Shown one piece after another: positions 1 through 52,539 of a DNA stretch of 63,524 nucleotides. A model generated the notes under the pieces. It searched no databases and was not told where the DNA came from. It saw only the letters and a program-made list of their open reading frames with translations. Positions within the stretch are counted from its first letter, which is position 1. Every line of letters begins with the position of its first letter. The DNA comes from a virus, in IMG/VR virus record IMGVR_UViG_3300049203_000318, positions 1 through 63,524 of that record; one strand, written 5' to 3'. Made by a program: the position numbers and the translations under genes.

Positions 1-1122
1 TTAGGCCGCTCGCCGAGCCGGCTTTGCTTTATGGTCAGATGCGCGGAAGCGCTCGGAGACGTTCGCGGCCAGGCGCTTGCGGTTCACCTTGCGCGAGTAG
101 TGTATGACGGTATTCACATCCATTCCATTGATTGCGCCGATCTCGTGTGCGCTGGCGCCCAGCTCAGCCAGATGGTTCGTGGAGCACTTGCGCAGCCCAT
201 GGAAGGTATAGAGCGCGCGCTTCTTGCGCTCGCCGTCGATCACAACCCATTCGTAATGCCCAAGCTCGATCATGAGCTCCTTTAGGCGGGTCTGGATCTG
301 GTCAGGCTTAGGAAAGGGAAGCCCGAAGCGATTGTAGAGCACCGTCGCGGCCTTCTCGGACGGCTCTATCTCCTCGACCTCCCGCAGAAGCTCCGGGTGG
401 ATCGGGATAAAGACGGTCACGCCGGTCTTCACCTGGGTCAGTTCAAGCGAATCCTCAGCGGCCGCGAGTAATGCCTCACGTTCGATCAGGATGCAGTCGG
501 AGATGCGCTGCCCGGTGTAGAGGCCCAAGATCACCGCAAGGCGCAGCATCGGGCTTGCGTGCGCAAGAACGGCCTCAATGACGTCCTCTGGCCAGGGATC
601 ATGCTCGCCAATGCGAGGCCGGCGCGCACCTTGAGCAGGGTTGAAGTTGTCCTTGCGATATTCCCAGCGGATGCCCGCATCGATCAGCGTCTTGAGGTGC
701 TTGATGAAGTTGATGGCCTTGCCAGGCTTGGCGGCCATATCCTCGCTTTCCAACACTTCATCAATCATCCGCGGCGTCAGCGAGGAAACCAGGGTATCTC
801 CCCAGCGCTCGTTGAATAGCCGAAAATAATAATCTGTGTTCACCTTCGTCGAGCGAGCAAGCTCTCTGTAGGCCAGACTGCGCTCATATGCGGCGATCAG
901 AGCCTTGAACGAGCCGGTGATGACATTGGTCTTAAATTCCTCGACCTTCTTCTTCGCTTCCTTTTTCGCCTGATGCTGGCGCGTCAGGCGGGCATATTCG
1001 GTGGCAAAGCGAGGGTCGCTCGGCAGCGGCAGCGGCTCATAGAGCTTTTTGCCGTTTACCTTCACGCTGAAGTAGAGCTTGCCCTTGATCCATACGGTAT
1101 AAGGGAATTTCTGCTGTTCCAT
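1..1122 (-). CDS. int: Tyrosine recombinase (phage integrase)
   Basis: Site-specific recombinase, 373 aa, expected to integrate and excise the phage genome at att sites. The catalytic pattern is visible: Arg206 in LYTGQRISD, the HxxR pair His308/Arg311 in FHGLRK, and Tyr342 in VIHYSRK. The N-terminal half (about 1-170) holds an arm-binding segment and a SAM-like core-binding domain. I chose ATG 1122 because it has GAGGAGG just upstream and follows the excisionase-like gene by 10 bp; a longer frame to 1269 would overlap that gene. No attP could be identified. The stop codon is the first three bases of the window, so an att site may lie across the window junction. Confidence 0.95.
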   Translation of the reverse strand: MEQQKFPYTVWIKGKLYFSVKVNGKKLYEPLPLPSDPRFATEYARLTRQHQAKKEAKKKVEEFKTNVITGSFKALIAAYERSLAYRELARSTKVNTDYYFRLFNERWGDTLVSSLTPRMIDEVLESEDMAAKPGKAINFIKHLKTLIDAGIRWEYRKDNFNPAQGARRPRIGEHDPWPEDVIEAVLAHASPMLRLAVILGLYTGQRISDCILIEREALLAAAEDSLELTQVKTGVTVFIPIHPELLREVEEIEPSEKAATVLYNRFGLPFPKPDQIQTRLKELMIELGHYEWVVIDGERKKRALYTFHGLRKCSTNHLAELGASAHEIGAINGMDVNTVIHYSRKVNRKRLAANVSERFRASDHKAKPARRAA

Positions 1123-1132
1123 CGCAACCTCC

Positions 1133-1363
1133 TCACATAGGCATACCCCTCCTGGGATCTGCAATCCCGAAGCCGGAGCGATCATCCAGATACTCATCCA
1201 GGATTTTGCGATCCCAGAGCGTGTTGCCACCATCCCGTGTAGGAGCGGGATATATGTGCGCGTCAACACGCGAGAGAAACTTGCTGCGAGAAACGCCCAT
1301 GTAAAGAGCTGCCCAATCCGCCGGGAGCATTCGGGGAGTGAAAGGAAGCGTCTGTTGGGTCAT
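1133..1363 (-). CDS. Excisionase-like small DNA-binding protein
   Basis: A 76-aa protein with a MerR/AlpA-like helix-turn-helix: a start such as LPADWAALYMGVSRSKF followed by a short wing that names a template such as GGNTLWDRKILDEYLDD. This layout is typical of phage Xis and AlpA proteins that bend att DNA and set recombination direction. It lies directly upstream of the integrase in the same orientation, 10 bp away, so the two are probably co-transcribed from the palindromic site at 1390-1409. Assignment rests on size, HTH pattern and position; a generic AlpA-type regulator is the alternative. Confidence 0.7.
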   Translation of the reverse strand: MTQQTLPFTPRMLPADWAALYMGVSRSKFLSRVDAHIYPAPTRDGGNTLWDRKILDEYLDDRSGFGIADPRRGMPM

Positions 1364-4811: not shown

Positions 4812-5108
4812 TTATTTATCTTGTGGCGTAGATAGCATGTCGATGAGCATCTTTTTCTCATCGTCGCTCAACTTGTCAGCGTCGCGCATCATTCCGCGCA
4901 CTGACCGCGGAAGCGCGGCTACTGCCTTGTCCTGCTGCTCCAGGATTTCGATGAGCTTGTCCTCGGGCATGTAGAGCAGGCAGGCAGACACCACATCCGA
5001 AAGACGCTTGCCGGTCTTGTCCTTCAGCGCCTGCGCTCGCTCCCAAGCCGCCGGCGTTACCTTGGTGCTGACAGTTTTGAGGGCGAGTTCGAGGGGGATG
5101 TTGGTCAT
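4812..5108 (-). CDS. Ribbon-helix-helix-like small protein
   Basis: A 98-aa protein. The first half (VSTKVTPAAWERAQALKDK then TGKRLSDVVSACLLY) has the strand-helix-helix look of ribbon-helix-helix DNA-binding proteins; the second half is acidic and helical. It could be a small regulator. The start overlaps the helicase stop as ATGA, so expression is coupled to the helicase. Family call is tentative. Confidence 0.5.
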   Translation of the reverse strand: MTNIPLELALKTVSTKVTPAAWERAQALKDKTGKRLSDVVSACLLYMPEDKLIEILEQQDKAVAALPRSVRGMMRDADKLSDDEKKMLIDMLSTPQDK

Positions 5109-6664
5109 GCAGCCATTCCTATCGGGTTCGGACGCTGGAAGCCAAGCCCAGCGAAATCGAAATCCTTTCCGCGCGGGAGAATACCTTCCTTGAAACCCGC
5201 GGTCTGTTCAACGATCGCGCGCCGCGCCTTCGCGTGCTTGATCAGGTGCTTGTTCTGACCATCCTCGAAATCGACAATGAAGGCGAAGTTGGGCGTCTTG
5301 GATTTCCGACGCAGCGCACGACCAATGCGCTGGCGCACCGCAACCTCAGCCTTTCCACCACCGGCCAGGATCAGGATCTGAAGCGCCGGGACGTCCACGC
5401 CGACGTCGATGATGGTCGACCCGATGACATAATCGTATTCTCCCGTAGCGAGCTTTCGCAGCGCGATCTTGCGCTTGTCCTTGCCGCTGTCGCCGAAGAT
5501 GAACGTGCCCTTGAGGCCGCACTGCTGGAGTAGATCGTGAAGGATCTTGCCGTGCTTTTGGCGCTTCACCAGGATGCCGACCGGCAGACCCCATCGTGAG
5601 CCCCGGATCGTCTCTGCGCATATGTATTTGTTGCGGATCGTGTTGTTCATGATCCCGAGCTCTTCCGCCTTCTGCCAGGCGGTGCCGCGGCGAAGTGTGG
5701 TCGGCTGCTCCTTCGGGCCGATAGGAATGAACTTGAACCAAGGCTTGGCGAGAATGCCGCAACCGATCAAATATTCCTCTGTTACGCGCAGTCGGATAGG
5801 GCCAAACATCCCAACCAACCGTAGATCGCTTTCGCCGTCCCGCATCATCGGAGTTGCAGTCAACCCCAGACGGTAATGCGCCTTGCGGCAGGCCTTGAGC
5901 ACCTCGTAATAGCCGTTGCCGCCGGCCTCGTGCGCCTCTTCACCGATCACGAACTCCACGCCATCCAGAAACGCGATCGTTTCATCATAGCGGCGCTGCC
6001 ATCGTTCGGTCGCAGCGAGCTGCGCCTCCTGGGTCGCTTTAGGATCGGCCGTGAACGGCGCCAGCCGGTCAGCGACCGTGGGGATCATGACGCATACGAC
6101 ATCGCCGCTGGTATCCCACTGGCTGTCGCCCACATACGATACCTTGAAGCCCATCTCCTCGAGCGCTTCGCCCATCTGGTAGAAGAGGGCGGTGCGCGTG
6201 GTGACGAATGCAGTCTTGCGCCCAATGCGCTTGATGCAGAGCGCAGCGACCCGGCTCTTGCCACCACCGGTGGCGATCTGCGCGATGTAGCTGCCATGCT
6301 TCTCGAGCAGCTTCACGGCCTTGAATTGATAGGCGCGGTTCTCATCTGCGGGGAAGCTGTCGACGATCGGATTGTCGAGCGTCGGCATCGGCCCCAGCGG
6401 CATTGGCAGGGGGTGTTTGACCATCTGGGCCTGCCAGCCCTTCTGTTGAAGCACCGTCAGGGCGGTTGTGACGAATCCCGCGGGGAATTTGCCGGAGGCC
6501 CAATCGTAGAGCGTTGACCGGCCATCCCATCCGCCCATACCCATATGCTCGTGCCCCTCAACGAGGAAGGACATGGCGTCGGAGAGGGCAAGCCTGGTGG
6601 GATCGTCGATCCCTTCGACCTTAGCCACTACGGGGTTTGCGAGCACGCGAGCGATTCTTGTCAT
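5105..6664 (-). CDS. Superfamily 2 DNA/RNA helicase (UvsW/type III restriction-like)
   Basis: A 519-aa helicase with Walker A ATGGGKS (131-137), a DEAH variant EEAH (242-245), motif III TATP (270-273), and motif VI QRIGRALRR in the second RecA domain. The order and spacing fit phage UvsW-like or RE-ResA helicases that remodel branched DNA, fitting the UvsX/UvsY-type genes elsewhere here. The N-terminal 100 residues are family-specific. ATG 6664 has no Shine-Dalgarno and directly abuts the palindromic element, so the mRNA may be leaderless. It heads the minus-strand operon and is divergent from the ParB-like gene. Confidence 0.9.
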   Translation of the reverse strand: MTRIARVLANPVVAKVEGIDDPTRLALSDAMSFLVEGHEHMGMGGWDGRSTLYDWASGKFPAGFVTTALTVLQQKGWQAQMVKHPLPMPLGPMPTLDNPIVDSFPADENRAYQFKAVKLLEKHGSYIAQIATGGGKSRVAALCIKRIGRKTAFVTTRTALFYQMGEALEEMGFKVSYVGDSQWDTSGDVVCVMIPTVADRLAPFTADPKATQEAQLAATERWQRRYDETIAFLDGVEFVIGEEAHEAGGNGYYEVLKACRKAHYRLGLTATPMMRDGESDLRLVGMFGPIRLRVTEEYLIGCGILAKPWFKFIPIGPKEQPTTLRRGTAWQKAEELGIMNNTIRNKYICAETIRGSRWGLPVGILVKRQKHGKILHDLLQQCGLKGTFIFGDSGKDKRKIALRKLATGEYDYVIGSTIIDVGVDVPALQILILAGGGKAEVAVRQRIGRALRRKSKTPNFAFIVDFEDGQNKHLIKHAKARRAIVEQTAGFKEGILPRGKDFDFAGLGFQRPNPIGMAA

Positions 6665-6815: not shown

Positions 6816-7487
6816 ATGAAATTCGAATTGCGAGATCCACGCACGATCGAATCGAGCCCCTGGAACGCCAACGTCGTGAGCCATGAAAACGAGGAGAAGC
6901 TGCGCGCATCGATCGAGCGGCACGGCATGTTCAAGCCGATCCTTGTTCGTGAGATCGGGCCGGCGTCTCGGCTCCAGTGCATCGGCGGCTGGCACCGGTG
7001 CGAGCAAGCCATTGAGCTTGGCTACGATGAAATTCCCACCATCAACCTGGGCGAGATCAGCGACGAGAAGGCGAAGGAAATCAGCCTGGCCGACAATGCC
7101 CGCTACGGCATCGACGACACGCTGAAGCTGTCGGAGCTGCTTGAGGAACTGGACGCCGCGGCGCTCGAGGCCGTGCTTCCCTGGAGCCAGCGCGACCTCG
7201 CGGCGATCACACAGAGCCTCACGGTGGACATCGACGACCTCGATCTCGACGAGCCGAGCGTCGACAACGATGCCGATGATGAGGAGCCGGAAGAGGCCGC
7301 CCCCAAAGCCTCCAAGACCCATCAAACGATGCGCTTCCGCAACTCGCTGACTGATGCAGCGCGGATCGCAGACCTGATCACCAAGACGATGCGTGAGCAG
7401 GGCTTCACCAAGGAAGACGACCTGACGAACGCCGGCGATGCGCTGGCTTACCTGCTGCTTAAGGACGACAGCAATGCCGCTGATTGA
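6816..7487 (+). CDS. ParB/Srx-fold protein 1
   Basis: A 223-aa protein whose N-terminal 95 residues form a ParB/Srx-type domain: IERHGMFKPILVREIG, then IGGWHRCEQAIELGYDEIP and SLADNARYG. The GGWHR motif corresponds to the nucleotide-binding GxxR/ERR region of ParB-like domains. The middle is acidic, and there is no ParB DNA-binding HTH, so this is not a partition ParB. Phages use this fold as CTPase/ATPase, nuclease or base-modification enzymes. It starts at ATG 6816 with GGAAGAGG upstream and leads a plus-strand run with a second ParB-like protein, an ABC ATPase and a Mom-like acyltransferase. Confidence 0.85.
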   Translation: MKFELRDPRTIESSPWNANVVSHENEEKLRASIERHGMFKPILVREIGPASRLQCIGGWHRCEQAIELGYDEIPTINLGEISDEKAKEISLADNARYGIDDTLKLSELLEELDAAALEAVLPWSQRDLAAITQSLTVDIDDLDLDEPSVDNDADDEEPEEAAPKASKTHQTMRFRNSLTDAARIADLITKTMREQGFTKEDDLTNAGDALAYLLLKDDSNAAD

Positions 7488-7647
7488 CGACCTGGATGAC
7501 GAACCCGAGATCCTCGACCACTGGAAGTTCGACGATTGCTCGACGTGCTTGAACCGCCTCAAGGTTCGCACTTGCCGAGCCTGCGACAGCGGGGAATTTT
7601 TCGAAGAGGCTGAGCCGGCCGGCCTCGATACCCTCTTCCACGATTGA
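7474..7647 (+). CDS. Small zinc-ribbon-like protein
   Basis: A 57-aa acidic protein with two CxxC pairs (CSTC and CRAC, 10 residues between pairs), consistent with a treble-clef or zinc ribbon. It overlaps the first ParB-like gene by 14 bp in another frame and ends 5 bp before the second. Its role is unknown; position suggests it works with the ParB-like pair. Confidence 0.6.
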   Translation: MPLIDDLDDEPEILDHWKFDDCSTCLNRLKVRTCRACDSGEFFEEAEPAGLDTLFHD

Positions 7648-7649
7648 GG

Positions 7650-7669
7650 TGCATGGTGAGCAACACACA
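7650..7669 (+). promoter_or_regulatory. Palindromic element overlapping ParB-like gene 2 start
   Basis: TGCATGG-TGAGCA-ACACACA. The ATG inside the left arm (7653) is the start codon of the gene, so the element is also its first codons. No -35 or -10 match was seen. Confidence 0.55.
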
Positions 7670-8339
7670 AACATCTGACCCGTATGATCTGGTAAAGCTG
7701 CCCACGGAGATGTGGGACGTCGATAAGGTCAAGCCTTACCACCGCAACACCAAGGTCCATTCGCCGGCACATATCGCCAAGCTGAAGAAGTCGATCGCCG
7801 CGGACGGCCTGTTCGACGCGCTCATCGTGGATTTCGAAGGCTATCTGATCGCCGGCCATGGTCGTTACGAGGCACTCGTATCTCTGGGTCACACTCAGGT
7901 TCCGGTGAAGCATGCGGCCCACCTCACCAAGAACCAGGCTGACGCGGCGCGCATCGCGCACAACAAAACCGCCTCTACCGAATATGACAGTGGCTTCATG
8001 GCCGAAGAGCTGCGGCGCCTGTCCGAGGCCGACGACGTCGACGTAACGGCGCTTGGCTTCGAGGATCACGAGCTTGAATTCCTGGTCGAGGATCTGGGCG
8101 ACATGGACATGTCGGCGATCTCCCAGGATCTTGATGCGGACATCGACGCGCAGGACGAGGAAACCGAGCGCAAGGTGACCGCGACCGACAGCTCCGAAGA
8201 GAAGCTGGTCAAGGTGCTGGGCTTTAACACCATTCCGATTGCTGCGGCAAAAGACGTTCGTCGCTTCCTGGCTCAGATCGAGGCCGACACCGGACTCAAA
8301 GGGGCAGAGGCCTTCGTGGAATTCTGCCGTGGAAGGTGA
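7653..8339 (+). CDS. ParB/Srx-fold protein 2
   Basis: A 228-aa ParB-like protein: VKPYHRNTKVHSPAHIAKL, then GLFDALIVDFEGYLIAGHGR, HxxH-like HAAHLTKNQ and RIAHNKTAS. The AGHGR motif is typical of phage ParB/Srx domains found with methylases and DNA-modifying genes. The C-terminal half is acidic with a short helical end. It shares fold and layout with the gene at 6816 but is clearly divergent. ATG 7653 has GAGG immediately upstream (short spacing), and its first codons are the palindromic element. A partner of the ATPase and acyltransferase downstream is likely. Confidence 0.85.
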   Translation: MVSNTQTSDPYDLVKLPTEMWDVDKVKPYHRNTKVHSPAHIAKLKKSIAADGLFDALIVDFEGYLIAGHGRYEALVSLGHTQVPVKHAAHLTKNQADAARIAHNKTASTEYDSGFMAEELRRLSEADDVDVTALGFEDHELEFLVEDLGDMDMSAISQDLDADIDAQDEETERKVTATDSSEEKLVKVLGFNTIPIAAAKDVRRFLAQIEADTGLKGAEAFVEFCRGR

Positions 8340-8342
8340 CCG

Positions 8343-8570
8343 ATGGCATTCTGGAGGGATCTTGCGGAATGGCTCCGAGACTGTCCCATCAGTCCTTTCA
8401 AGCGGGTTCGACATTCCGGCGAACCAGATGAGGCGGCTGGAGGCGTCGGCTGGGAAGATTGGTCCGACGAGGAAGAGTGGATCGCCAGCCAGGAAGATTG
8501 GGAGCCGATCGACACCAATGAGGGCGGATATGCCGAAGATGTGTTCCTGAAGGATCGACATGAAAATTGA
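8343..8570 (+). CDS. Small acidic Trp-rich protein
   Basis: A 75-aa acidic protein rich in Trp and Glu/Asp (for example WEDWSDEEEWIASQEDW). No family recognised. It starts 3 bp after the second ParB-like gene and overlaps the ABC ATPase by 11 bp, so it is clearly part of this operon. A DNA-mimic or regulatory subunit is conceivable from composition alone. Confidence 0.55.
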   Translation: MAFWRDLAEWLRDCPISPFKRVRHSGEPDEAAGGVGWEDWSDEEEWIASQEDWEPIDTNEGGYAEDVFLKDRHEN

Positions 8571-9204
8571 ACTGCACAAATCATTCTCGACCCGCACCGA
8601 GCGGTCGGAGCGCGTCATCAAGGTGGCTGAGGCGTTCGGCCTGGGCCTAGAGGATCGCGAATTTACCGTGCTCGACGGTGTTGAGCTCGAGGTAAACCGC
8701 GGCGACGTGATCTACATTTGCGGCCAGTCTGGGGCCGGCAAATCCGTTCTCCTCCGGGAGCTGGCTCAGAAGCTCGAAGAGAATGGCGACCGGGTTGTCT
8801 CGATCGATGGGGTCGAACTGCTCGACAAGCCGCTGATAGACCAGCTGGGCGGGGATGGTCTGGCTGACGCCATCCGTCTGCTCTCGATTGCTGGCCTGTC
8901 CGACGCCTACCTCTACGTTCGCAAGCCCGCTGAACTGAGCGACGGGCAGCGCTATCGCTTCCGATTGGCCAAGCTGATCGAGGGTGATGCTGACGTGTGG
9001 GTGGCTGACGAATTCGGCGCTGTTCTGGATCGCGTCACTGCCAAGATCGTCGCGTGGAACCTGGCCAAGGTTGCCCGCTCGCTCGGCAAAACACTGATCG
9101 TCGCAACCACCCACACTGACCTCCAAGAGGAACTTGCCCCGTCCCTCACCATCACCAAGCGCTTTCACGAGCGCATCAAGATCGAGACGCTGCATGGTGA
9201 CTGA
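8560..9204 (+). CDS. Stand-alone ABC-type ATPase
   Basis: A 214-aa ABC ATPase without any membrane component. Walker A is GQSGAGKS (about residues 55-62), the signature is LSDGQRYR (a variant of LSGGQ), Walker B is VWVADEF with the catalytic Glu, and the H-loop is in ATTHTD. The text resembles ABC ATPases that in other bacteria and archaea occur fused to or beside a GNAT domain, as I recall the family. Here the GNAT protein is the next gene and overlaps by 11 bp. That pairing points to a nucleic-acid-related complex rather than transport. AAGGATC precedes ATG 8560. Confidence 0.85.
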   Translation: MKIELHKSFSTRTERSERVIKVAEAFGLGLEDREFTVLDGVELEVNRGDVIYICGQSGAGKSVLLRELAQKLEENGDRVVSIDGVELLDKPLIDQLGGDGLADAIRLLSIAGLSDAYLYVRKPAELSDGQRYRFRLAKLIEGDADVWVADEFGAVLDRVTAKIVAWNLAKVARSLGKTLIVATTHTDLQEELAPSLTITKRFHERIKIETLHGD

Positions 9205-9210
9205 CACGCA
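9191..9210 (+). promoter_or_regulatory. Palindromic element overlapping Mom-like gene start
   Basis: TGCATGG-TGACTG-ACACGCA. It sits across the end of the ABC ATPase gene, and its ATG (9194) is the start of the acyltransferase, the same arrangement as at 7650. Confidence 0.5.
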
Positions 9211-10117
9211 CATATCTTTGCGCTCGCTGGAGTGCAACCAGTTTTTTCCCTGGGAGACGCATCGCGTCGAAAATCCCAGACCCAAGCTGTCACTGCTCGA
9301 CAATATGACCGTGCAGCGCGGGACGATCGAGGACTGGCGCACGCTCGAAGCGCTCCACTACAAGCAATCCGGCAGTCTCCCGGCCGGCAGCCACCATTTC
9401 ACGCTGAAACTCGGCGACGAGCTGGTGGGCGTGCTGGTGATGGCCAGCCCCAAGCTGCTGCTGAAGGAACGACATGTCGTTCTGCCCAAGCTCAAGCCGA
9501 CCGGGCAGGACAACAAGATGACCAATCAGTATCGGATGAAATGGATCAACGCGAACATGTCAGTCGTGGCGCGTGTCGTGGTGGACACGATGTATCGTGG
9601 CGCCGGCCTGGCCTACCGGTTCACCAACATCGCGGCGCGGATGGAGGGCAAGCGGTTCATCGAGATCCAGTCCAGCATGTCGAAATACAACCAGTTCGCC
9701 CACAAGGCCGGGTTCCATTTCGTCAAGCCGATGCGGTCGAACAAATACGATGTCGGCATCCGGTTTTTCCGCTCAACCTTCACGAGCGACCCAGCCGACC
9801 TAGAAGCGATTCTGGAGGAATGGCTGGCCAAAGATCCGATCGAACGGACCGCCGTTGAGCGCGCGACAAAGGATTTCTACTATGCCCACTCGGCGCTGGA
9901 GAAGACCGGCAAGTCGCTCGGCGGGGTAGGAGAGCGCCGCGTCGAGAAAATGTCGATGCGCGATTGCCTCCACGCCCTCCAGCAGATGGTGCTCGCGAGC
10001 CCGCTCTACGGGATTTACACGAACCCCGATGTCGGCAGCTCTCTGCCTGCGGTTTTGCCCCTGACCGCCTTCGATGCCCAGAAACCTGCCGAGAAGCTGA
10101 TCCTGCCATGCCCCTGA
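9194..10117 (+). CDS. Mom-like GNAT acyltransferase
   Basis: A 307-aa protein with a GNAT core in the first 190 residues. The acyl-CoA loop is RVVVDTMYRGAGLAYRF, followed by SMSKYNQFAHKAGFHF. The N-terminal stretch LHYKQSGSLPAGSHHF then LGDELVGVLV recalls phage Mu Mom (xWHYSGKxPxG...GVV), whose established role is to modify adenine in DNA. The 120-residue C-terminal part is unassigned. Its gene overlaps the ABC ATPase, and two ParB-like proteins precede it, so a DNA-modifying complex that protects phage DNA is a reasonable hypothesis. A tRNA or protein acetyltransferase is the alternative. The start MVTDT lies in the palindromic element. Confidence 0.7.
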   Translation: MVTDTHISLRSLECNQFFPWETHRVENPRPKLSLLDNMTVQRGTIEDWRTLEALHYKQSGSLPAGSHHFTLKLGDELVGVLVMASPKLLLKERHVVLPKLKPTGQDNKMTNQYRMKWINANMSVVARVVVDTMYRGAGLAYRFTNIAARMEGKRFIEIQSSMSKYNQFAHKAGFHFVKPMRSNKYDVGIRFFRSTFTSDPADLEAILEEWLAKDPIERTAVERATKDFYYAHSALEKTGKSLGGVGERRVEKMSMRDCLHALQQMVLASPLYGIYTNPDVGSSLPAVLPLTAFDAQKPAEKLILPCP

Positions 10118-10437
10118 TGCCGCTTGAACCCAAACGCCGCGGACCCATGCTGACACCCAAGCAGCTGGCCGTGCTCAAGGCTCTGGTGAAGGGGAACGCC
10201 GATGGTTCTCTGCTCGATGTTTGGCAGCTGATCGAAGCTACGGCGCCAGGAACGACACGCGGATCGATGATCTGCACGCTGCGGCATCTGGCCATGCACG
10301 AGCTGGTTCGCGAAGACGAGCTTGTTATCCGACGATCGAGGAAAGTTCGGACGCTCGCGGCGACCGACAAGGGGCGAGATTTGGTTCGACCGGCGGCCCT
10401 GCCAGCGGCCTGTTCACCGCAACCTCGAACCCCCTAG
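10108..10437 (+). CDS. Winged-helix DNA-binding protein
   Basis: A 109-aa protein with a winged-helix pattern: LTPKQLAVLKALVKG, SLLDVWQLIEATAPGT, RGSMICTLRHLAMHELVRE and LVIRRSRKVRTLAATDKGR (the wing). It is probably a regulator or a packaging accessory. It overlaps the acyltransferase stop; ATG 10108 or the ATG at 10117 (in a TGATG overlap) could be the start. It is the last gene before the structured non-coding region and terminase, so it may bind there. Confidence 0.65.
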   Translation: MPLMPLEPKRRGPMLTPKQLAVLKALVKGNADGSLLDVWQLIEATAPGTTRGSMICTLRHLAMHELVREDELVIRRSRKVRTLAATDKGRDLVRPAALPAACSPQPRTP

Positions 10438-10763: not shown

Positions 10764-11339
10764 GTGCCTGCCGCTCCGCGCCTGACGCCCTCCGATTGGG
10801 CTACCGTGGTTACGCTCTACGAGCGTGGCGAGAAGACGCTCCGCGAGCTTGCTGAGCAGTTCGGGGTGTCGCCGCAGGCGATCCAGAAAGGCTTGAAGCA
10901 GCGCGGTATCGAGAAGGCTTCCCGCCTCGACGAGGTGTCCAACGAGGTCGATGACGTCGCCCGCAAGGAGCGCGAACGCCGGGTTAAGCAGGCCGCGCAG
11001 CATGTCGAAACCTATGCCGCCTGGTATAATGTCCTCGCCAAGCTGGCGATGAAGAAGGTGATCGACGCCAATCAGGCCGGCGGCATCGCGACGGTCAACG
11101 CCGACGTCCTGACGATCAAGAACGCGATCGCCATCATTGAAAAGGCTCGCAATGAGAGTTGGGACATCCTTGGCATCGAAGATCTGCTGGGCGAAGGCTC
11201 CGAGCTGCCCGACCTGAACGTCGGCGAATACAGCGAGTCCGAGCTTGAGCGTATCCGCGAGGCCAACGAGCAGAGCTACCTCGAAGGCGTCGAGGAAGAG
11301 GAAAACGATCAGGGCGAAGAATACGATCAGGACGACTGA
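10764..11339 (+). CDS. terS: Terminase small subunit
   Basis: A 191-aa protein that recognises phage DNA for packaging. The N-terminus has an HTH (residues 10-45: WATVVTLYERGEKTLRELA then FGVSPQAIQKGLKQRGI), followed by a helical oligomerisation region and a very acidic tail (ELERIREANEQ, EEEENDQGEEYDQDD). This form is typical of TerS. It starts with GTG 10764; the GGAG about 12 bp upstream is loosely spaced. The large subunit follows after 2 bp. The structured region just upstream is the natural candidate for its binding site. Confidence 0.85.
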   Translation: MPAAPRLTPSDWATVVTLYERGEKTLRELAEQFGVSPQAIQKGLKQRGIEKASRLDEVSNEVDDVARKERERRVKQAAQHVETYAAWYNVLAKLAMKKVIDANQAGGIATVNADVLTIKNAIAIIEKARNESWDILGIEDLLGEGSELPDLNVGEYSESELERIREANEQSYLEGVEEEENDQGEEYDQDD

Positions 11340-11341
11340 TC

Positions 11342-12601
11342 GTGGTCTATTTCCCGCTCCCGAAGATCGATCTGAAGCTGCACCATGGCCAAGCCGCGGT
11401 GTTTCGCCATCCGGCCCGTTTCCGCATCCTGGTCGCCGGCCGGCGCTTCGGCAAGACCCACCTTTCACGCATTGAGCTGATCCGCGCCGCCAAGGGCAAG
11501 GGCCGCCGAACCATCTGGTATGTGGCCCCAACCTTCTCCATGGCTCGCGAAATTATGTGGGATGAGCTGATCGAGGCTCTCCCTTCATCTTGGGTTGCCA
11601 AAAAGCACGAGACGCGCCTCGAGATCCGTCTCATCAACGGCACGGTGATCCAGCTGAAGGGCGCCGACCGTCCCGACACGCTGCGCGGCCGCGCCCTGCA
11701 TTTCTGCATCTGCGACGAGTTCCAGGATTTCCGACCGGATGTGTGGGAGAAGGTGCTCTACCCGACCCTGACCACCACCAAGGGCCGCGCGCTGATAATC
11801 GGCACGCCCAAGAGCTACAACCACTTTTACGAGCTCTACTCCAAGGGCCAGATCAGGAAGAACCAGGAAAGTGGCCAGTGGTTTTCCTGGCAGTTTCCGA
11901 CGATCATGTCGCCCTTCTTTCCGCCGAGCGAAATCAAGCACGCGCGGGAGAACCTTGACCCCAAAACCTTCCGTCAGGAATTCATGGCCAGCTTCGAGAG
12001 CATGGCCGGCCGGGTCTATTATGCCTTCGACCGCGGGCGCCATGTTGGACGCTATCCGTTCAATCCGAACCTGCCGATCATCATAGGGCAGGACTTTAAC
12101 GTCGACCCCATGTCGAGCGTCATCATCCAGCAGCAGCCGAACGGCGAGGTATGGATTGTGGACGAAATCTACATGCCTTCGTCCAACGTGCTGGAGGTCT
12201 GCGAGGAGATCGACCGCCGCTATTTCCGGCACCGGAACAAGATTGCCCTCTACCCTGACCCCGCCGGCGCTAACCGCAGTTCCAGCCGCGGCGAGTCCGA
12301 CCTGGACGTCTTCCGCAACCGCGGCTTTAAGCGCATCTTCTACAAGAAGAAGCACCCGCTGGTGGCTGACCGTGTCGCGACCGTCAACAGCATGTTCCAG
12401 AACGTCGATGGCGAGTCCAAGATGTTTGTGGATGAGCGCTGCACAAAGCTGATCGAAAGCCTCGAGCAGACGATCTACAAGCCAGGAACCCCACAGGTGG
12501 ATAAGAGCCAGGGTGTCGAGCATATGTGTGACGCTCTCGGCTACCCGATCCATTTCATCTACGGCGAGCGCTTCAAGAAGCTGGTGGGCTGGTCTTATTG
12601 A
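11342..12601 (+). CDS. terL: Terminase large subunit
   Basis: A 419-aa packaging ATPase-nuclease. The ATPase half has Walker A AGRRFGKTH (about residue 33), Walker B CICDEFQDF (about 122) and the coupling motif GTPKSYNHF. The nuclease half has acidic residues in GQDFNVDP (about 250), DPAGANRSS and HMCDALGY, the RNase H-like pattern of TerL. Length is normal. It starts at GTG 11342, two bases after TerS. It should form a ring at the portal and cut concatemers. Confidence 0.95.
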   Translation: MVYFPLPKIDLKLHHGQAAVFRHPARFRILVAGRRFGKTHLSRIELIRAAKGKGRRTIWYVAPTFSMAREIMWDELIEALPSSWVAKKHETRLEIRLINGTVIQLKGADRPDTLRGRALHFCICDEFQDFRPDVWEKVLYPTLTTTKGRALIIGTPKSYNHFYELYSKGQIRKNQESGQWFSWQFPTIMSPFFPPSEIKHARENLDPKTFRQEFMASFESMAGRVYYAFDRGRHVGRYPFNPNLPIIIGQDFNVDPMSSVIIQQQPNGEVWIVDEIYMPSSNVLEVCEEIDRRYFRHRNKIALYPDPAGANRSSSRGESDLDVFRNRGFKRIFYKKKHPLVADRVATVNSMFQNVDGESKMFVDERCTKLIESLEQTIYKPGTPQVDKSQGVEHMCDALGYPIHFIYGERFKKLVGWSY

Positions 12602-44733: not shown

Positions 44734-44740
44734 CTGCGAG

Positions 44741-44760
44741 TGCATACAAAGCAACACACA
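44741..44760 (+). promoter_or_regulatory. Palindromic element before CobT/CobS-like operon
   Basis: TGCATAC-AAAGCA-ACACACA, 13 bp before the ATG. TACAAA could be a -10, but no -35 is visible. Confidence 0.5.
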
Positions 44761-44772
44761 CACGAGGAAGTT

Positions 44773-46050
44773 ATGAGCGCACCGGCAGCATTGAAGGCGA
44801 TCTCGCATCGCGACAGTCTCGCAAAAACCGTCCGTATGCTGACGCGCGATGGCGTGTCGGTGCGGTTCCGCGGTCACCAGCCGCATGTGGTGGCGAAGGG
44901 TAACAAGGCGGTCGCGCTCGTGCTGCCCGAGCTCAATAATAACGCCTCGCCCGAGTTGATTGCGGCAATCCAGGGTTACCTCGACCATGAGGTTGGCCAC
45001 ATCTTCTACACCCCCTTCGCGAAAGCGGCTCGAGCGGGTGAGTTCGATCCGACTGCGCCGGTCCTGATCAATGTGGTTGAGGACATACGCCTAGAGAAGC
45101 TGCTTCCTCGCGATCTTCCCGGCACTCGGGAGAACCTCGAGCGGATGTATGAGCGCTTCATACCTTCCATGGTGCATCCGCCGATGGCGGCCGCCGTCGA
45201 GAGTGGTAACCCGGCCAAGGCCCTGGCGGGCGTCATGGTTTGTGCCATGCGCGCTCTCGCAGGTCAGAAGGCGTTCCAGAAGCACATGGACGACCACGGA
45301 TACTGGAAGCACTTCATGCCTCTCCTGAGCCGCATGCCGACGCTCTCGCGCCGCCTGAAGGAGATGGAGCGCTTCGAGGATGTCGAGGATCTCGTGCGCG
45401 ACATCGTGGAGCAGCTGAACGACATGGCGCCCAAGCCGCAGCAGCCTGAGCCTGCCCAGGGTCAGGAAGAGGACAGCGATCCGTATCACAGCCCGCCGCC
45501 GATGGGAGGAGGTGGCGACGATGAGGATGATGGCGACAGCGACGACGCCTCTGACGATGACCAGGACTGCACCCCCACAGATGGCGATGGTGACGGCGAA
45601 GCTGGCGACGATGAGGATCAGGATAGCGACAGCTCGCCCACCGCGGACGCTGAGGATGAGGAAGAGGGTGAAGGTGCGTCCGACGACAGCGACGACGCCT
45701 CTGATACCGCCGGCGATGACGGTGACGCATCCGAGCAGAATGGCGACGATCAGGAAGACGGCGAGGCCGGTGATGACGGTGATGAGCCTGGCGAAGGAAA
45801 GGCCGGCAAGGAGGAAGGTCAGGAAGAAAGTTTGAAACCAGGGGAAGGTGGAAAAACCAATATGACCACCACGGAAGCTCTCAAGCAGCTAGAACCCACT
45901 CAACGCAAAGCGCTTTTCATGTATAAAAAAGAAAGAAAGACGGTCGCACAGATCGCGCAGGAGATGAGCGCAACAGAGGATGTTGTGCTTGATCTTCTTC
46001 GCAATGCTCGCCGTCATTTTGGTGAAATCATGAAGGGAGCGCGGGCGTGA
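44773..46050 (+). CDS. HExxH protein with acidic linker and sigma4-like HTH (CobT-like N half)
   Basis: A 425-aa protein. Residues 1-220 have the metallopeptidase-like fold of phage CobT relatives: DHEVGHIFYTPF (HExxH at 72-76) and NVVEDIRLEKLL (the downstream Glu). Residues about 230-360 are a low-complexity Asp/Glu linker. Residues about 364-425 look like a sigma70 region-4/HTH: LEPTQRKALFMYKKERKTVA, AQEMSATEDVVLDLLRNAR. An in-frame ATG at 45862 has GGGGAAGGTGGA upstream, so a 62-aa HTH protein may also be made alone. It overlaps the VWA gene by GTGA. No cobalamin genes are near, so cobalt chelation is unlikely. Confidence 0.7.
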   Translation: MSAPAALKAISHRDSLAKTVRMLTRDGVSVRFRGHQPHVVAKGNKAVALVLPELNNNASPELIAAIQGYLDHEVGHIFYTPFAKAARAGEFDPTAPVLINVVEDIRLEKLLPRDLPGTRENLERMYERFIPSMVHPPMAAAVESGNPAKALAGVMVCAMRALAGQKAFQKHMDDHGYWKHFMPLLSRMPTLSRRLKEMERFEDVEDLVRDIVEQLNDMAPKPQQPEPAQGQEEDSDPYHSPPPMGGGGDDEDDGDSDDASDDDQDCTPTDGDGDGEAGDDEDQDSDSSPTADAEDEEEGEGASDDSDDASDTAGDDGDASEQNGDDQEDGEAGDDGDEPGEGKAGKEEGQEESLKPGEGGKTNMTTTEALKQLEPTQRKALFMYKKERKTVAQIAQEMSATEDVVLDLLRNARRHFGEIMKGARA

Positions 46051-47438
46051 TTACAGCTTTGTCTTTGGATGATGCAAAAGACATCATCGACATCTATGGC
46101 CCCGACGAGATATTCTGGCCCACTGAGCACAAGGCCGAACTCCGTCAGCTCCAGGCGAACAACTCGGAGTTCCGCGAGTTCGTCGAGGATGCCCGCTGGC
46201 TCGAGTCGATGCTCGAGAATTGGGACGAAGATGAGGATGGCGCCTCGATCGAAATGGACGACTCCGACTGGAAGCAGCAGGACACGCCCCCACCGCCGCC
46301 CGAGCGTAACGAGGATCGGGATGAAGACGAGGATGAGCCTGAGCAGGACGGCGACGCCGAAGATGAGGAAGAGGAGCGTGATCGCCCCGAGCCCCAACCC
46401 CTCGATGCTGAGCCGATCGAGATCGACCCCGATGATATTCAGGACATGGACGGCATGCTCGCCCAGGTCATCATGAAGGAGGTTCAGTCCTATGACTCAG
46501 AGGAGTTCCGCGTTTTCACCCGCGACTTCGACGAGATCGTGGACATCGTCGTTCCCGATGGCGTGAACCTGGAGCCGCTGGAGCAGAAGGTCGCCAAGAC
46601 CACCGGCCCGTTGCAGAAGGATATGCGCCGGCTGATCGCTGCTCGCAGCCAGGTAAAGCGGATGCCGGGTATGCGCTCCGGCCGCCTCCACTCACCCAAC
46701 CTGCACCGCATCATGGCCGGCGATGACCGCGTGTTTACGCGGCGAGAGGAAGCTCCGTCGCTCGACACTGCAATCTCCCTCGTGATCGACTGCTCGGGAT
46801 CGATGAATGGCAACCGCATGGTGTTGGCGACCGAGACGGCCTACGCGATTGGCAGCGTGCTCGCGCGCCTCAATGTTGCATTCGAGTGCCTGGGCTTCAC
46901 TGACAACGGCAGCGACCCTCGCGTCGCCACCAAAGAATATAAGCAGGCGCTCGCTGAGGCTGACGCCATCGCAAAGATCATCCGTCCGATCCCGATCGTG
47001 ATGCCCAAGTTCAAGACGTTCGACGAGCGATGGACGCAGCCGACCCAGCGGCGCTTTGCTCACGTCTTCAATCAGCTTGGCTACAGCGATAACTGCGGCT
47101 TCAAGATGGGTTCAACTCCCGAAGGCTGCGGGATAGAGTTTGCAGCGCGCCGCCTGGTTGCGCGGCCCGAGCAGCGGAAGATCATGCTGGTGATGACGGA
47201 CGGCGAGCCTTGTGGTCACGTCTATAATCCGCGCGGCATGGAGGACTATCATGCGTATCAGCGGCAGTCCGAGCAGGTCGTGAAGGCAATCGCCGCCGCC
47301 GGCATCGATCTTGTCGGCATAGGCATCCAGCATAACGGCCCCGAAGGCTACTATCCGCATCACATGACGATCCAGGACGTGTCGGAAATGCCTAAGCAGC
47401 TGCTCCAGCTCCTCAAGAAGTTCATGACGGGCAACTGA
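46047..47438 (+). CDS. VWA-domain protein, CobT-like
   Basis: A 463-aa protein starting at GTG 46047. The N-terminal third is acidic (DEDEDEPEQDGDAEDEEEE). The C-terminal VWA domain holds an intact MIDAS: DCSGSMNG (about 248-255) and MTDGEP (about 383-388). This matches the CobT subunit type that pairs with a CobS-like AAA ATPase; established MoxR-VWA pairs act as chaperone-like complexes that load metals or mature proteins. No CobN is present, so the target is unknown. It lies between the HExxH gene and the AAA gene. Confidence 0.85.
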   Translation: MITALSLDDAKDIIDIYGPDEIFWPTEHKAELRQLQANNSEFREFVEDARWLESMLENWDEDEDGASIEMDDSDWKQQDTPPPPPERNEDRDEDEDEPEQDGDAEDEEEERDRPEPQPLDAEPIEIDPDDIQDMDGMLAQVIMKEVQSYDSEEFRVFTRDFDEIVDIVVPDGVNLEPLEQKVAKTTGPLQKDMRRLIAARSQVKRMPGMRSGRLHSPNLHRIMAGDDRVFTRREEAPSLDTAISLVIDCSGSMNGNRMVLATETAYAIGSVLARLNVAFECLGFTDNGSDPRVATKEYKQALAEADAIAKIIRPIPIVMPKFKTFDERWTQPTQRRFAHVFNQLGYSDNCGFKMGSTPEGCGIEFAARRLVARPEQRKIMLVMTDGEPCGHVYNPRGMEDYHAYQRQSEQVVKAIAAAGIDLVGIGIQHNGPEGYYPHHMTIQDVSEMPKQLLQLLKKFMTGN

Positions 47439-47439
47439 C

Positions 47440-47459
47440 TGCATAGTAAGCCACACAAT
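47440..47459 (+). promoter_or_regulatory. Palindromic element, first of a pair
   Basis: TGCATAG-TAAGCC-ACACAAT, starting one base past the VWA stop codon. ATGACG at 47424 could be a -35 (23 bp to ACACAAT). Confidence 0.5.
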
Positions 47460-47465
47460 TCCCAC

Positions 47466-47500
47466 TTGCACGAATCGCGGTGCATGGTAAGTAACACACA
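47466..47500 (+). promoter_or_regulatory. Palindromic element, second of the pair, with promoter
   Basis: TGCATGG-TAAGTA-ACACACA (47481-47500) preceded by TTGCAC at 47466. This is the only place with two elements within 42 bp; the CobS-like gene starts at 47536. Confidence 0.55.
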
Positions 47501-47535
47501 TCAACAGCGCGCAGACGCGATCAAGGAGCTAAGAC

Positions 47536-48768
47536 ATGAGCACTGCAACGGCTATGAAGATGACCACTGCCACCGCCACCGACAAGATCGAATGCAAGAT
47601 CTGCGGCTCGCTCGAGCACTATATCCCCAAGCACCTGACGCAGGCACACCCTGATGTCAGCCAGGAGGAATATGAGGCGCGCTTCCCCGGCGCCCCGATC
47701 ATGAGCGAGAAGTTCGCACAGGCCGCCAATAAAAAGGTCGCGGAGAACAAGCAGCAGGACGCCGCTGCTCAGCAGATGGTCGCCAAGATCCTGCCGTTCT
47801 CGCAGCCCGGATCGTCGGTGAAGCGTCCGATGCACGAGGTCTTCGAGCTCCCGCTGAGTGACATTCTCCGATCGCCGGCCCGCCGAAATCAGCAGCAGGG
47901 CGAACCCCGCCAGGTTGATGTGCTGGAAAATCTGCCGGCCGAGTTGCAGGAGCTCGTGCCCGACATCGACGCCAGCTATGTCTTCCGTCCTGAAGAGCTC
48001 GTCGATCTCGTGATGGCACTTCAGCTAAATATGCCCTCGCTCGCTTGGGGTATGCACGGCACGGGCAAGACGACGCTGTGGGAACAAATCTGTGCCCGCA
48101 TGAATCGCCCCTGGCTCCGCGTCCAGCACACCGACACGACCGAGGAGGCGCATATCGTAGGGCAGATGCTGGTGCGCGACGGCGCCACCGTCTTCGAATA
48201 TGGGCCGCTGGCCGAGGCGATGATCCACGGTCTGGTCTATTGCGCCGACGAATATGACTTCGCCCATCCGGCGGTCATCGCGGTCTATCAGCCGATCCTG
48301 GAGGGTAAGCCGCTCTACATCAAGGAAGCGCCGGCCGGTCAGCGCATGATCAAGCCGCATCCGAACTTCCGCTTCATCGCAACGGGCAACACCAACGGTT
48401 CGGGCGACGATACCGGCCTCTATTCGGGCACGAAGATCGGTAACGCCGCTGCCTATTCTCGCTTCGGCGTAACCGTTCAGGTCCACTATCCCGAGAAGAA
48501 CACGGAGATCGCCATCCTGCGCCAACGCATTGGCGTGACGCAGGAGGTGGCCGACAAGCTGGTCGACTTCGCCGAGCGGGTGCGCACCATGTATGGAAAT
48601 GGCGAGCTGTCGCTGCCGATCTCTCCGCGCGAGCTGATCCGCGCTGCTACCATCGGCATGGTTCGCGGTGGTGAGTTCCGCAAGGGCATCGATCTGTCCT
48701 ACACCAACCGTCTCGACACCACGCAGGGCGAGGCTGTCCGTCAGACCGCGCAGCGCATCTTCGGCTAA
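47536..48768 (+). CDS. MoxR/CobS-like AAA ATPase with N-terminal zinc finger
   Basis: A 410-aa protein. The N-terminus has a C2H2-like finger (CKICGSLEHYIPKHLTQAH, residues 20-38). The AAA core has Walker A GMHGTGKTT (about 171-179), Walker B YCADEYD (about 236), sensor 1 FIATGNTNG and an arginine finger region. CobS and MoxR ATPases form rings that work with VWA partners, here the preceding gene. A strong terminator follows. Confidence 0.9.
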   Translation: MSTATAMKMTTATATDKIECKICGSLEHYIPKHLTQAHPDVSQEEYEARFPGAPIMSEKFAQAANKKVAENKQQDAAAQQMVAKILPFSQPGSSVKRPMHEVFELPLSDILRSPARRNQQQGEPRQVDVLENLPAELQELVPDIDASYVFRPEELVDLVMALQLNMPSLAWGMHGTGKTTLWEQICARMNRPWLRVQHTDTTEEAHIVGQMLVRDGATVFEYGPLAEAMIHGLVYCADEYDFAHPAVIAVYQPILEGKPLYIKEAPAGQRMIKPHPNFRFIATGNTNGSGDDTGLYSGTKIGNAAAYSRFGVTVQVHYPEKNTEIAILRQRIGVTQEVADKLVDFAERVRTMYGNGELSLPISPRELIRAATIGMVRGGEFRKGIDLSYTNRLDTTQGEAVRQTAQRIFG

Positions 48769-48878: not shown

Positions 48879-49120
48879 TGCAGCCATTGGGATGTTTCGG
48901 TTCGTCGCTCGCCTTCGATGGTGAATCAGATGTGTGTGGCCACTGTGTCGCGCAGGCCGAATGCTCGAAGATCGTGGAGGATCGCCGGCCGAACGTGCTG
49001 CGGCTCCTCGATCGCTTTTTAGACGCATCGGGCAAGCCGATGAGCTTTCCATGGATGACGCGCGCGGAAAGGAAAGCCGCTCGCGATGCTATGAACCAAT
49101 CCCTCCCGGAGACAGAATGA
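48878..49120 (+). CDS. Small Cys-containing protein upstream of DnaE
   Basis: An 80-aa protein with the cysteines CFGSSLAFDGESDVCGHC and AECS, possibly a zinc site, then a basic helical C-terminus (FPWMTRAERKAARDAMNQ). It has no Shine-Dalgarno and probably a leaderless mRNA. It overlaps the polymerase gene as ATGA, so it may control or couple to DnaE synthesis. ATG 48866 within the operator is a less likely start. Confidence 0.6.
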   Translation: MQPLGCFGSSLAFDGESDVCGHCVAQAECSKIVEDRRPNVLRLLDRFLDASGKPMSFPWMTRAERKAARDAMNQSLPETE

Positions 49121-52100: not shown

Positions 52101-52539
52101 CATTCTCGATGCGCCGTTCAACGATCGCGAAGAGCTCAGGCAGCAATGGTCCTACATGAACTATGTGGCGCCGAGCCTGCATGAAGCCGGCCTGACGATC
52201 GATGACGCCGTCTGGACCTGGATCTTGCGCCGACCCCTGCGCAAGGGCGAGGATATGCCTTCCGCTGAAGCCGCCCGGTCACTGCTGTTTCTCCGCAAGG
52301 AGATCGACATCATGAAGCCGCCGGTGATCGTCTTGCTCGGGCCGCAGGCCATCAAGACATTCTTCCCGGAGATAAAGGGGCTGGCGGATCATGTCGGCCG
52401 CAAGAGCTTCTCCGCGGAACTCGACGCCACCGTGATCGTCGGATTCAAGCCCACGCAGATCTATCATGACGCTGAAAAGCGCGAGACGCTCACGAAAGTT
52501 TTCTCCGAAGCGAAAGCATTGGTCGACGAATCTTATTGA
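49117..52539 (+). CDS. dnaE: DNA polymerase III alpha subunit with C-terminal UDG-like extension
   Basis: A 1140-aa C-family replicative polymerase. The N-terminal PHP domain is degenerate: the usual HxHxxYS block reads SVRTDFSLGES, so the metal site is probably lost. Catalytic core motifs include GPGRGSVGGS (about 376), PDADLDF (about 417) and THAGGVVVAG. A helix-hairpin-helix region follows (AIDHLNRVGAF). From about 990 to the end the text MVILDAPFNDREE, IMKPPVIVLLGPQAIKTFFP and FKPTQIYHD resembles the uracil-DNA glycosylase fold in place of the usual OB and tau-binding parts. Catalysis by that part is uncertain because key motifs are altered. Confidence 0.9.
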   Translation: MIQPLLSVRTDFSLGESILGIKDLSAVADKAGAKVVGICDTMSISSVVEATNALKKSDRRLLAGVRIRVIMADDTGRGKEERESPCYLKLYPVNDDGMRSIYRLLTRAFDTDRFYFVPRVTWDDLATLLDHDCLVISTGDLESVAQREDMLQAMSDLVARVRFSARFYELVPSDTPYYSRQNRRVIDWATAINESGTIHDWRPLVVNPAFWLENDVEAFSCNAGIADRRPYQDYLRPVPKYEPMTVRDLAHATVKANTAIQTRYGTGFGGQFKEGLENTAKLVDLCQYSWAKLDPSLPVLADDPDEALKDLCKKGWSERFTTPIFSYIPDKQTLVAEYLPRLQFELDTLKRLGFAPYFLLVSDLVRWSKSQNIYVGPGRGSVGGSLVAYLVGITDVDPIRFNLLFERFINPDRLDLPDADLDFMSTRREEVIAYLAKRYGSDRVAGIVNYNTMGARGAIRDVARIYGLSQDDLGATKFIGDTHGVSAGLEEAHASTPEIQEFARRFPGVWSKALKLEGKMRAYGTHAGGVVVAGEPLANRAVVEKRGDARVINWDKRVSEEQGLIKLDVLGLSTLDMFDHAIKLIFSRRAMKLDINKLPLDDPETLDIFNAAKTAGVFQFEGGSVRRLLKEMAKTDSLTFEDLVALNALNRPGPLDAGLTEAYIRRRAGTEAVTYPHDVLEPILKDTYGVICYQEQVMQVSRDLCGFTPGEADYLRKAMGKKDADIMAKMRDKFVSGAVNVSGMPQADADRLFTDIEGFAGYAFNRSHAVEYTIIAYQAAYLKAHYLVEFYSASMGIADSDKLSGIVKQALKDGIKVIPPDVNVSTNRFEPLNDVLIIAPLSAIKNVSEKGAAAIMEARSKTEPTEVEEKVKVPGQRRLQVVQKTYGPGRFVSMEDFRARVSARAVNSKAIDHLNRVGAFARIEPGQPKSTHPSRQRDQIELMPEISDQGVVANRAIEFDDLVADKVIEIEGEMREVLGDGIVPCHLGSAPKMMVILDAPFNDREELRQQWSYMNYVAPSLHEAGLTIDDAVWTWILRRPLRKGEDMPSAEAARSLLFLRKEIDIMKPPVIVLLGPQAIKTFFPEIKGLADHVGRKSFSAELDATVIVGFKPTQIYHDAEKRETLTKVFSEAKALVDESY

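What the first reader, a model, noticed from the sequence alone, without database searches (positions are those of the whole stretch)
6816..10117. ParB-ParB-ABC ATPase-Mom-like GNAT cassette, possible DNA hypermodification system
Two ParB/Srx-fold proteins without DNA-binding HTH, a Zn-ribbon peptide, an acidic Trp-rich peptide, a soluble ABC ATPase and a GNAT protein resembling Mu Mom are packed with overlaps just upstream of the packaging genes. Mom is established to modify adenine in DNA. A multi-protein version with an ATPase and ParB-fold enzymes could make a different modification that evades restriction.
Basis: partly seen in the sequence, partly recalled or inferred. Interest (0 to 1): 0.8.

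Follow-up and report, generated by a model that had tools for sequence, protein, structure and literature searches.

The report
Phage ParB–ABC–acyltransferase DNA-marking module
A block of four conserved genes, locked in place beside the DNA-packaging genes of a large phage family, most likely attaches a small acyl group to phage DNA; the function is unproven, but related phages carry extra enzymes next to it that suggest which chemical groups to look for.

Summary
The genes are real and at the stated coordinates. ParB1, ParB2, ABC ATPase and GNAT are a core module of an SSU5/nickie/RHEph10-like phage lineage. The order UvsW(−)-ParB1-ParB2-ABC-GNAT-(wHTH)-TerL held in all of ~90 loci (some duplicates) wherever the fragment was long enough. 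The Zn-ribbon peptide is variable and the acidic peptide was found nowhere else. The ABC and GNAT are the split form of an ABC–GNAT fusion (phrog_11143) of unrelated phages, usually with ParB directly upstream (62/76 and 46/61 loci). The GNAT is not a Mom by Pfam or profile comparison, but it shares Mom's His-Tyr…Arg register and Mu Mom is among its top fold matches; unlike Mom it keeps the acyl-CoA (R/Q)GxG loop. GNAT plus ABC ATPase as a DNA-base acylation system was already predicted (Iyer 2013, cited in PMC7824862), so the kind is known and the double-ParB split form is a variant. New here: two accessory enzymes are almost never found without the fusion in viral contigs: CoA-transferase III, usually with PanD (33/33), and a formyltransferase (69/70). 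They suggest the acyl group. Restriction evasion is untested: the window avoids palindromes strongly (GTAC 0 seen, 67 expected), but so does Mom-modified Mu.

The parts
6816..7487 (+). ParB1: ParB/Srx-fold protein, 223 aa, no HTH; GG-x-HR nucleotide-pocket motif
   Evidence: Pfam ParB_N 4.2e-9; phrog_723 1.6e-53; Arg of GGxHR 99%, His 100% in 85 homologues
7474..7647 (+). Small CxxC...CxxC (Zn-ribbon-like) peptide, 57 aa, optional
   Evidence: Sequence; homologues in about two thirds of near relatives, not found in SSU5 and nickie
7653..8339 (+). ParB2: ParB/Srx-fold protein, 228 aa, GHGR motif; related to the ParB domain of ParB-DNA methyltransferase fusions
   Evidence: phrog_930 3e-58; phrog_498 'DNA methyltransferase' positions 35-187 of 633, 3.8e-32; GHGR Arg 100% in 93 homologues
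8343..8570 (+). Acidic Trp-rich peptide, 75 aa; not conserved, probably not essential to the module
   Evidence: No family; no homologue in the 23 related loci tested
8560..9204 (+). Soluble ABC ATPase, 214 aa: Walker A GQSGAGKS, signature LSDGQ, Walker B/D-loop ADEFGAVLDR, H-loop ATTH; no membrane partner in the module
   Evidence: All four motifs in 54/54 homologues; AlphaFold2 pLDDT 91, nearest folds MJ0796/YbbA/MacB-type NBDs; profile match to fusion ABC domain 99.8%
9194..10117 (+). GNAT acyltransferase, 307 aa: His55-Tyr56, Arg127, acyl-CoA loop R135-G-A-G138, EIQSSMSKYN; extra, mostly helical C-terminal region (~185-305)
   Evidence: phrog_886 6.3e-106; invariant columns; AlphaFold2 pLDDT 90; GNAT folds incl. 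Mu Mom 8bv8; profile match to fusion GNAT 96.1%
10108..10437 (+). Small winged-HTH-like protein, 109 aa, usual last gene of the module (phrog_900)
   Evidence: phrog_900 1.1e-12; weak PadR-like hit; recurs after GNAT in most relatives
5105..6664 (-). UvsW-like DEAD/ResIII helicase, divergent conserved neighbour
   Evidence: Pfam ResIII 3.9e-13; same place and strand in relatives
10764..11339 (+). TerS-like DNA-binding protein
   Evidence: phrog_867 2.1e-29 and terminase small subunit phrog_1206 3.1e-9
11342..12601 (+). Terminase large subunit (TerL)
   Evidence: Pfam Terminase_6N 4.1e-8; conserved downstream in relatives

Best explanation
The cassette is a ParB-targeted, ATPase-gated acyltransferase that marks phage DNA before packaging. 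Inferred mechanism: (1) the two ParB-fold proteins bind a nucleotide and sit on DNA, acting as the adaptor or clamp that recruits the modifying enzyme, as ParB domains may do when fused to phage DNA methyltransferases; (2) the ABC ATPase dimerises on ATP and, through hydrolysis, licenses or moves the complex on DNA or exposes the base; (3) the GNAT binds an acyl-CoA through its R-G-A-G loop and, using the His-Tyr...Arg site shared with Mom, transfers the acyl group to an exocyclic amine of a base. In this lineage the acyl donor would come from the host, because no dedicated supply gene was found. Relatives add PanD plus CoA-transferase III (predicted beta-alanyl-CoA) or a formyltransferase. 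Shown here: gene conservation, fusion, ParB linkage, intact ATPase and GNAT motifs, fold, accessory-gene linkage. Inferred: that the substrate is DNA, which base, which acyl group, the role of ATP, and the benefit to the phage.
For: ABC and GNAT are the split form of ABC-GNAT fusions in LE4, Jace, BiggityBass, P12024S, vB_VmeM-32 (hhalign). ParB lies directly upstream of the fusion in 62/76 genome and 46/61 viral loci, while other ParB genes in those loci are rare. ParB2 is homologous to the ParB part of ParB-DNA methyltransferases, and a ParB gene also precedes a Mom-like gene in Microbacterium phage Appa. TerL lies within 3.5 kb downstream in 38/62 and 33/59 fusion loci and upstream in 1 and 0. 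His-Tyr and Arg fall in one register in the window family, the fusions and Mom. Starting from CoA-transferase III alone 33/33 loci, and from the formyltransferase alone 69/70, have ABC-GNAT directly upstream. Mom 8bv8 and the nucleobase acetyltransferase TmcA 2zpa are among the top folds. The same class of system was predicted to acylate DNA bases (PMC7824862).
Against: No biochemical or mass-spectrometric evidence exists in anything I could read. The GNAT fold search also returns polyamine, arylalkylamine and protein acetyltransferases at equal or better scores. Sequence profiles do not join it to Mom. The window and its relatives avoid palindromic restriction sites (window 6-mer obs/exp 0.84, nickie 0.53, against T4 0.96), so any mark does not give complete protection. 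The SSU5-like genomes searched, and the window, carry no PanD, CoA-transferase III or formyltransferase, so the acyl group there is unknown.
Confidence: 0.66

Rival explanations
1. Packaging or partition complex: ParB proteins and the ABC ATPase act on the phage or plasmid chromosome (site recognition, segregation, concatemer handling) and the GNAT acylates a protein partner such as terminase, a ParB or a nucleoid protein.
For: Position next to TerS/TerL throughout; some relatives are phage-plasmid-like; the ABC ATPase is soluble.
Against: SSU5 carries a separate ParA-like partition gene elsewhere and Rhizobium relatives carry parA/parB/repC. Linked PanD, CoA-transferase III and formyltransferase genes point to small-molecule acyl chemistry. 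The ParB-fusion-TerL arrangement also occurs in phages with different portal types (Phage_portal, Portal_Mu).
Confidence: 0.13
2. Host-takeover acetyltransferase acting on host protein or RNA (ribosome, RNA polymerase, tRNA), with the ATPase as a remodeller, like phiKMV Rac or TmcA.
For: Generic GNAT and TmcA/NAT10 fold matches; acyl-CoA loop retained; many phage GNATs are predicted to act this way (PMC7824862).
Against: Near-constant pairing with ParB and placement beside the packaging genes.
Confidence: 0.11
3. True Mom system: the GNAT makes the Mu-type carbamoylmethyl-adenine and the other genes are auxiliary.
For: His-Tyr...Arg register shared with Mom; Mom structures rank 6th in PDB and 2nd in BFVD; ParB next to a Mom-like gene in Appa.
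Against: No Mom Pfam match in 65 members or in whole genomes of the lineage at E<=10; profile probability 2.8%; the canonical CoA loop is present here and absent in Mom; Mom's SFAD motif is absent.
Confidence: 0.05

Closest known systems
GNAT coupled to an ABC ATPase, predicted DNA-base acylation system (Iyer et al. 2013, gkt573; restated in PMC7824862 with Tenacibaculum phage pT24; called 'MK0520, ABC-type ATPase fused to a predicted acetyltransferase' in phage Cyrano)
   Same: Same pairing of ABC ATPase and GNAT; profile-level homology of both parts to phrog_11143; pT24 carries the same family
   Different: Separate genes, two ParB partners, extra ~120-aa C-terminal region on the GNAT, fixed place in a ~110-kb phage lineage. 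The 2013 paper itself was not held, so details that it may already give could not be checked
Mu Mom (PF25680, PDB 8bv8)
   Same: GNAT fold, His-Tyr...Arg register, phage gene, ParB neighbour in at least one Mom phage
   Different: No family-level sequence match; canonical acyl-CoA loop present; ABC ATPase partner; lacks Mom's SFAD motif
Phage ParB-DNA methyltransferase fusions (phrog_498)
   Same: ParB2 matches their N-terminal ParB domain at 3.8e-32
   Different: Acyltransferase plus ABC ATPase in place of the methyltransferase; ParB not fused
TmcA / NAT10 (N4-acetylcytidine on RNA; 2zpa)
   Same: GNAT working with a P-loop ATPase on a nucleobase amine; fold match
   Different: RNA substrate, helicase-type rather than ABC ATPase, no ParB
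SSU5 / nickie / RHEph10 phage lineage
   Same: Identical gene order; GNAT 43-49% and ABC 53-61% identical
   Different: Accessory small genes differ

Membership tests
Predicted GNAT-ABC ATPase DNA-modification systems | ABC ATPase with complete motifs next to or fused with a GNAT | tested here: met
   All four ABC motifs in 54/54 and GNAT motif R.V.D..(F/Y)RG.G in 65/65; overlapping genes
Predicted GNAT-ABC ATPase DNA-modification systems | Homology of both parts to the fused family (phrog_11143) | tested here: met
   hhalign 99.8% (ABC) and 96.1% (GNAT)
Predicted GNAT-ABC ATPase DNA-modification systems | Acylates a DNA base | not testable with these tools
   Needs nucleoside mass spectrometry
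Mom family (PF25680) | Match to the family model | tested here: not met
   0 of 65 GNATs; 0 of 7 genomes at E<=10; hhalign 2.8%
Mom family (PF25680) | His-Tyr and beta-strand Arg in the active-site register | tested here: met
   H55, Y56 and R127 invariant in the window family (a motif count finds HY in 64/65); HY in 154/154 fusions; H58, Y59, R111 invariant in 7 Mom proteins; same register in the joint alignment
Mom family (PF25680) | Mom-type loop (no canonical acyl-CoA RGxG) and SFAD motif | tested here: not met
   Window has R135-G-A-G138 and EIQSSMSKYN instead
GNAT superfamily | GNAT fold | tested here: met
   AlphaFold2 pLDDT 90, 42 PDB matches at E<=0.001; the top-ranked are nearly all GNATs
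ParB (partition CTPase) | ParB_N fold with conserved Box-II Arg | tested here: met
   ParB2 Pfam score below the curated cut-off but PHROG match strong
ParB (partition CTPase) | HTH and C-terminal dimer domain | tested here: not met
   No such family found
SSU5-like phage lineage | UvsW(-)-ParB1-ParB2-ABC-GNAT-(wHTH)-TerL order | tested here: met

The most novel reading that the evidence does not exclude
ParB-ABC-GNAT is the core of a widespread family of phage DNA acylation systems with exchangeable acyl supply: aspartate decarboxylase plus CoA-transferase III making beta-alanyl-CoA in one branch, a formyltransferase tailoring the adduct in another, and a host acyl-CoA in the window's double-ParB branch. 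It would write DNA modifications not described before.
Probability: 0.33. Interest if true: 0.87.

Novelty: new variant of a known kind. Interest (0 to 1): 0.6.

Why it matters
A prediction standing since 2013 (GNAT plus ABC ATPase acylates DNA) becomes directly testable. The linked PanD/CoA-transferase III and formyltransferase genes name candidate adducts with definite masses, and the module occurs in phages of E. coli K-12, Salmonella LT2, Rhizobium and Gordonia that can be grown. If confirmed it adds acyl-CoA-driven, ATP-gated base acylation to the known phage DNA modifications and gives a role to some of the many ParB-like phage proteins that lack a partition function.

Tried and rejected
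1) Filing the GNAT as a Mom: rejected on Pfam and profile tests. 2) A sequence search for solved relatives of the GNAT gave only spurious repeat-protein hits; searches with the ABC and the fusion profile list only ABC ATPases among the matches shown, no ABC-GNAT. 3) Palindrome avoidance as a test for protective modification: the window avoids sites strongly, but the Mu control (Mom-modified) does too (6-mer obs/exp 0.60), so it excludes only T4-type full protection. 4) Stenotrophomonas phage DLP3, whose DNA resisted 15 restriction enzymes, looked like supporting evidence but was not among the 30 phage records matched by the GNAT, so it was dropped. 5) Searches for restriction or mass-spectrometry data on SSU5, Nican01, phiK7B1, RHEph10, B1VFA, BUCTxx99 and LE4 found none in the papers opened. 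6) Iyer et al. 2013 is not in the library. 7) ABC lineage: fold search points to transporter-type NBDs (MJ0796, YbbA, MacB), not SMC/Rad50.
Full report
Observation. The window is an IMG/VR virus record of 63,524 bases, shorter than its ~103-122 kb relatives, so probably a fragment. PHROGs gives strong matches over nearly the full length for ParB1, ParB2 and GNAT and a strong match for ABC. The phrog_886 label 'ABC transporter ATP-binding subunit' on the GNAT is misleading: the protein has no P-loop match and folds as a GNAT.

Conservation. tblastn of the GNAT found 30 phage records, all covering more than 80% of the query, in phages of Rhizobium, Pseudomonas, Klebsiella, Escherichia, Salmonella and Stenotrophomonas, and 296 relatives in viral contigs. 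In every locus with enough flank the order is UvsW helicase (minus strand), ParB1, ParB2, ABC, GNAT, usually a wHTH, then TerL (about 90 loci, some the same contig fetched twice). The Zn peptide is patchy and the acidic peptide was not found elsewhere. GNAT residues H55, Y56, R127, D131, R135, G136, G138, E157, S160, M162 and N166 are invariant in 65 aligned sequences (a motif count on the unaligned sequences finds HY in 64). Both ParBs keep the Box-II arginine in 99-100% of homologues (ParB1 GGxHR, ParB2 GHGR). All ABC motifs are intact in 54 of 54.

Link to a wider family. The ABC domain recovers distant phages in which ABC and GNAT are one protein (phrog_11143): Leptospira LE4, Gordonia Jace and BiggityBass, Nonlabens P12024S, Vibrio vB_VmeM-32; jumbo phage pT24 has a split version. 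Profile comparison ties window ABC to fusion ABC (99.8%, 8e-29) and window GNAT to fusion GNAT (96.1%, 2.8e-9). Among fusion loci, a ParB gene lies directly upstream in 62 of 76 (genome contigs) and 46 of 61 (viral contigs), with other ParB genes in only 7 and 5 of them. TerL lies within 3.5 kb downstream in 38 of 62 and 33 of 59, upstream in 1 and 0.

Relation to Mom. The GNAT model matches many GNATs; the crystal structure of Mu Mom (8bv8) is sixth in the PDB (E 1.8e-4) and a Mom is second in BFVD, the LE4 fusion fourth. A joint alignment puts the His-Tyr pair and a strand arginine of the window family, the fusions and Mom in one register. But no member matches the Pfam Mom model, hhalign gives 2.8%, and the window keeps the acyl-CoA loop RGAG where Mom has a different loop. 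Conclusion: it may work like Mom, but it is not a Mom.

What the acyl group might be. Genes directly downstream of fusions include aspartate 1-decarboxylase PanD (Pfam 2e-33 in Jace), a CoA-transferase family III protein, and a formyltransferase. I then searched viral contigs with the CoA-transferase alone and the formyltransferase alone. ABC-GNAT was directly upstream in 33 of 33 and 69 of 70 eligible loci, mostly with ParB before it and, in the first set, usually PanD between. The queries came from such neighbourhoods, so the searches may favour that branch of each enzyme family; even so, this near-obligate linkage is the strongest new evidence. GNAT, PanD and CoA-transferase III together read as aspartate to beta-alanine to beta-alanyl-CoA to acylated target. 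In the formyltransferases the canonical Asn before His-Pro-Ser-Leu-Leu-Pro is Gly in 75 of 75 scanned; one of the two search motifs contained that Gly, so the count is biased. None of these genes occurs in the window or in six larger genomes of its lineage, which would use a host acyl-CoA.

Restriction. The window has no GTAC in 63.5 kb (67 expected; in 35 kb of coding sequence 0 against 66 in synonymous-codon shuffles, minimum 48) and none of GGATCC, CTGCAG, ACGCGT, GTGCAC. Six-base palindromes are at 0.84 of expectation in the window, 0.53 in nickie, 0.51 in BiggityBass, 0.56 in Jace, 0.59 in T7, 0.60 in Mu and 0.96 in T4. So the module does not give T4-type blanket protection; a partial mark like Mom's is neither supported nor excluded.

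Known or new. PMC7824862 (2021) states that a GNAT coupled with an ABC ATPase was predicted earlier (Iyer 2013) to make an uncharacterised acyl modification of a DNA base. I could not read the 2013 paper, so the PanD, CoA-transferase and formyltransferase linkage may be partly described there; my search of the held library did not surface a paper describing it. Steps shown here: gene content, conservation, fusion, motif integrity, fold and linkage. Steps inferred: DNA as substrate, base, acyl group, role of ATP hydrolysis, and benefit to the phage.

Noticed in passing
whole window; L395 (RHEph10 20000-69990): GTAC is completely absent from the 63.5-kb window (67 expected) and from 50 kb of RHEph10 (50 expected), both with this module; SSU5 and nickie have ~145 each in 50 kb. 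Points to strong selection by a GTAC-specific restriction enzyme or nuclease.
   Followed up: partly
L108:6095-7203, L227, L235, L174, L278-L312: PanD aspartate decarboxylase plus CoA-transferase III directly after ParB-ABC-GNAT; 33/33 viral CoA-transferase loci carry ABC-GNAT.
   Followed up: yes
L107:1823-2473, L177, L190, L194, L197, L165, L313-L392: Formyltransferase-fold protein directly after ABC-GNAT in 69/70 viral loci; annotated 'tRNA-methyltransferase' in BiggityBass; lacks the canonical catalytic Asn (GYH for NxH).
   Followed up: partly
L117:1969-3228 (Microbacterium phage Appa): ParB gene overlapping a Mom-like gene, with a tRNA-Gly gene just after; suggestive given Mom's glycine-derived group.
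   Followed up: no
window 44740-48768: Genes in the place of the CobT/CobS-like (porphyrin biosynthesis) pair that is annotated beside the DNA polymerase in SSU5, nickie and RHEph10; conserved, role unclear.
   Followed up: no
window 48934-52539: Large ORF at the place of the phage-encoded DnaE-type DNA polymerase annotated in SSU5, nickie and RHEph10.
   Followed up: no
window 1-1269 (minus strand): ORF that reads like a phage integrase, at the edge of the record; some relatives are phage-plasmid-like, so the lysogenic mode of this phage is unclear.
   Followed up: no
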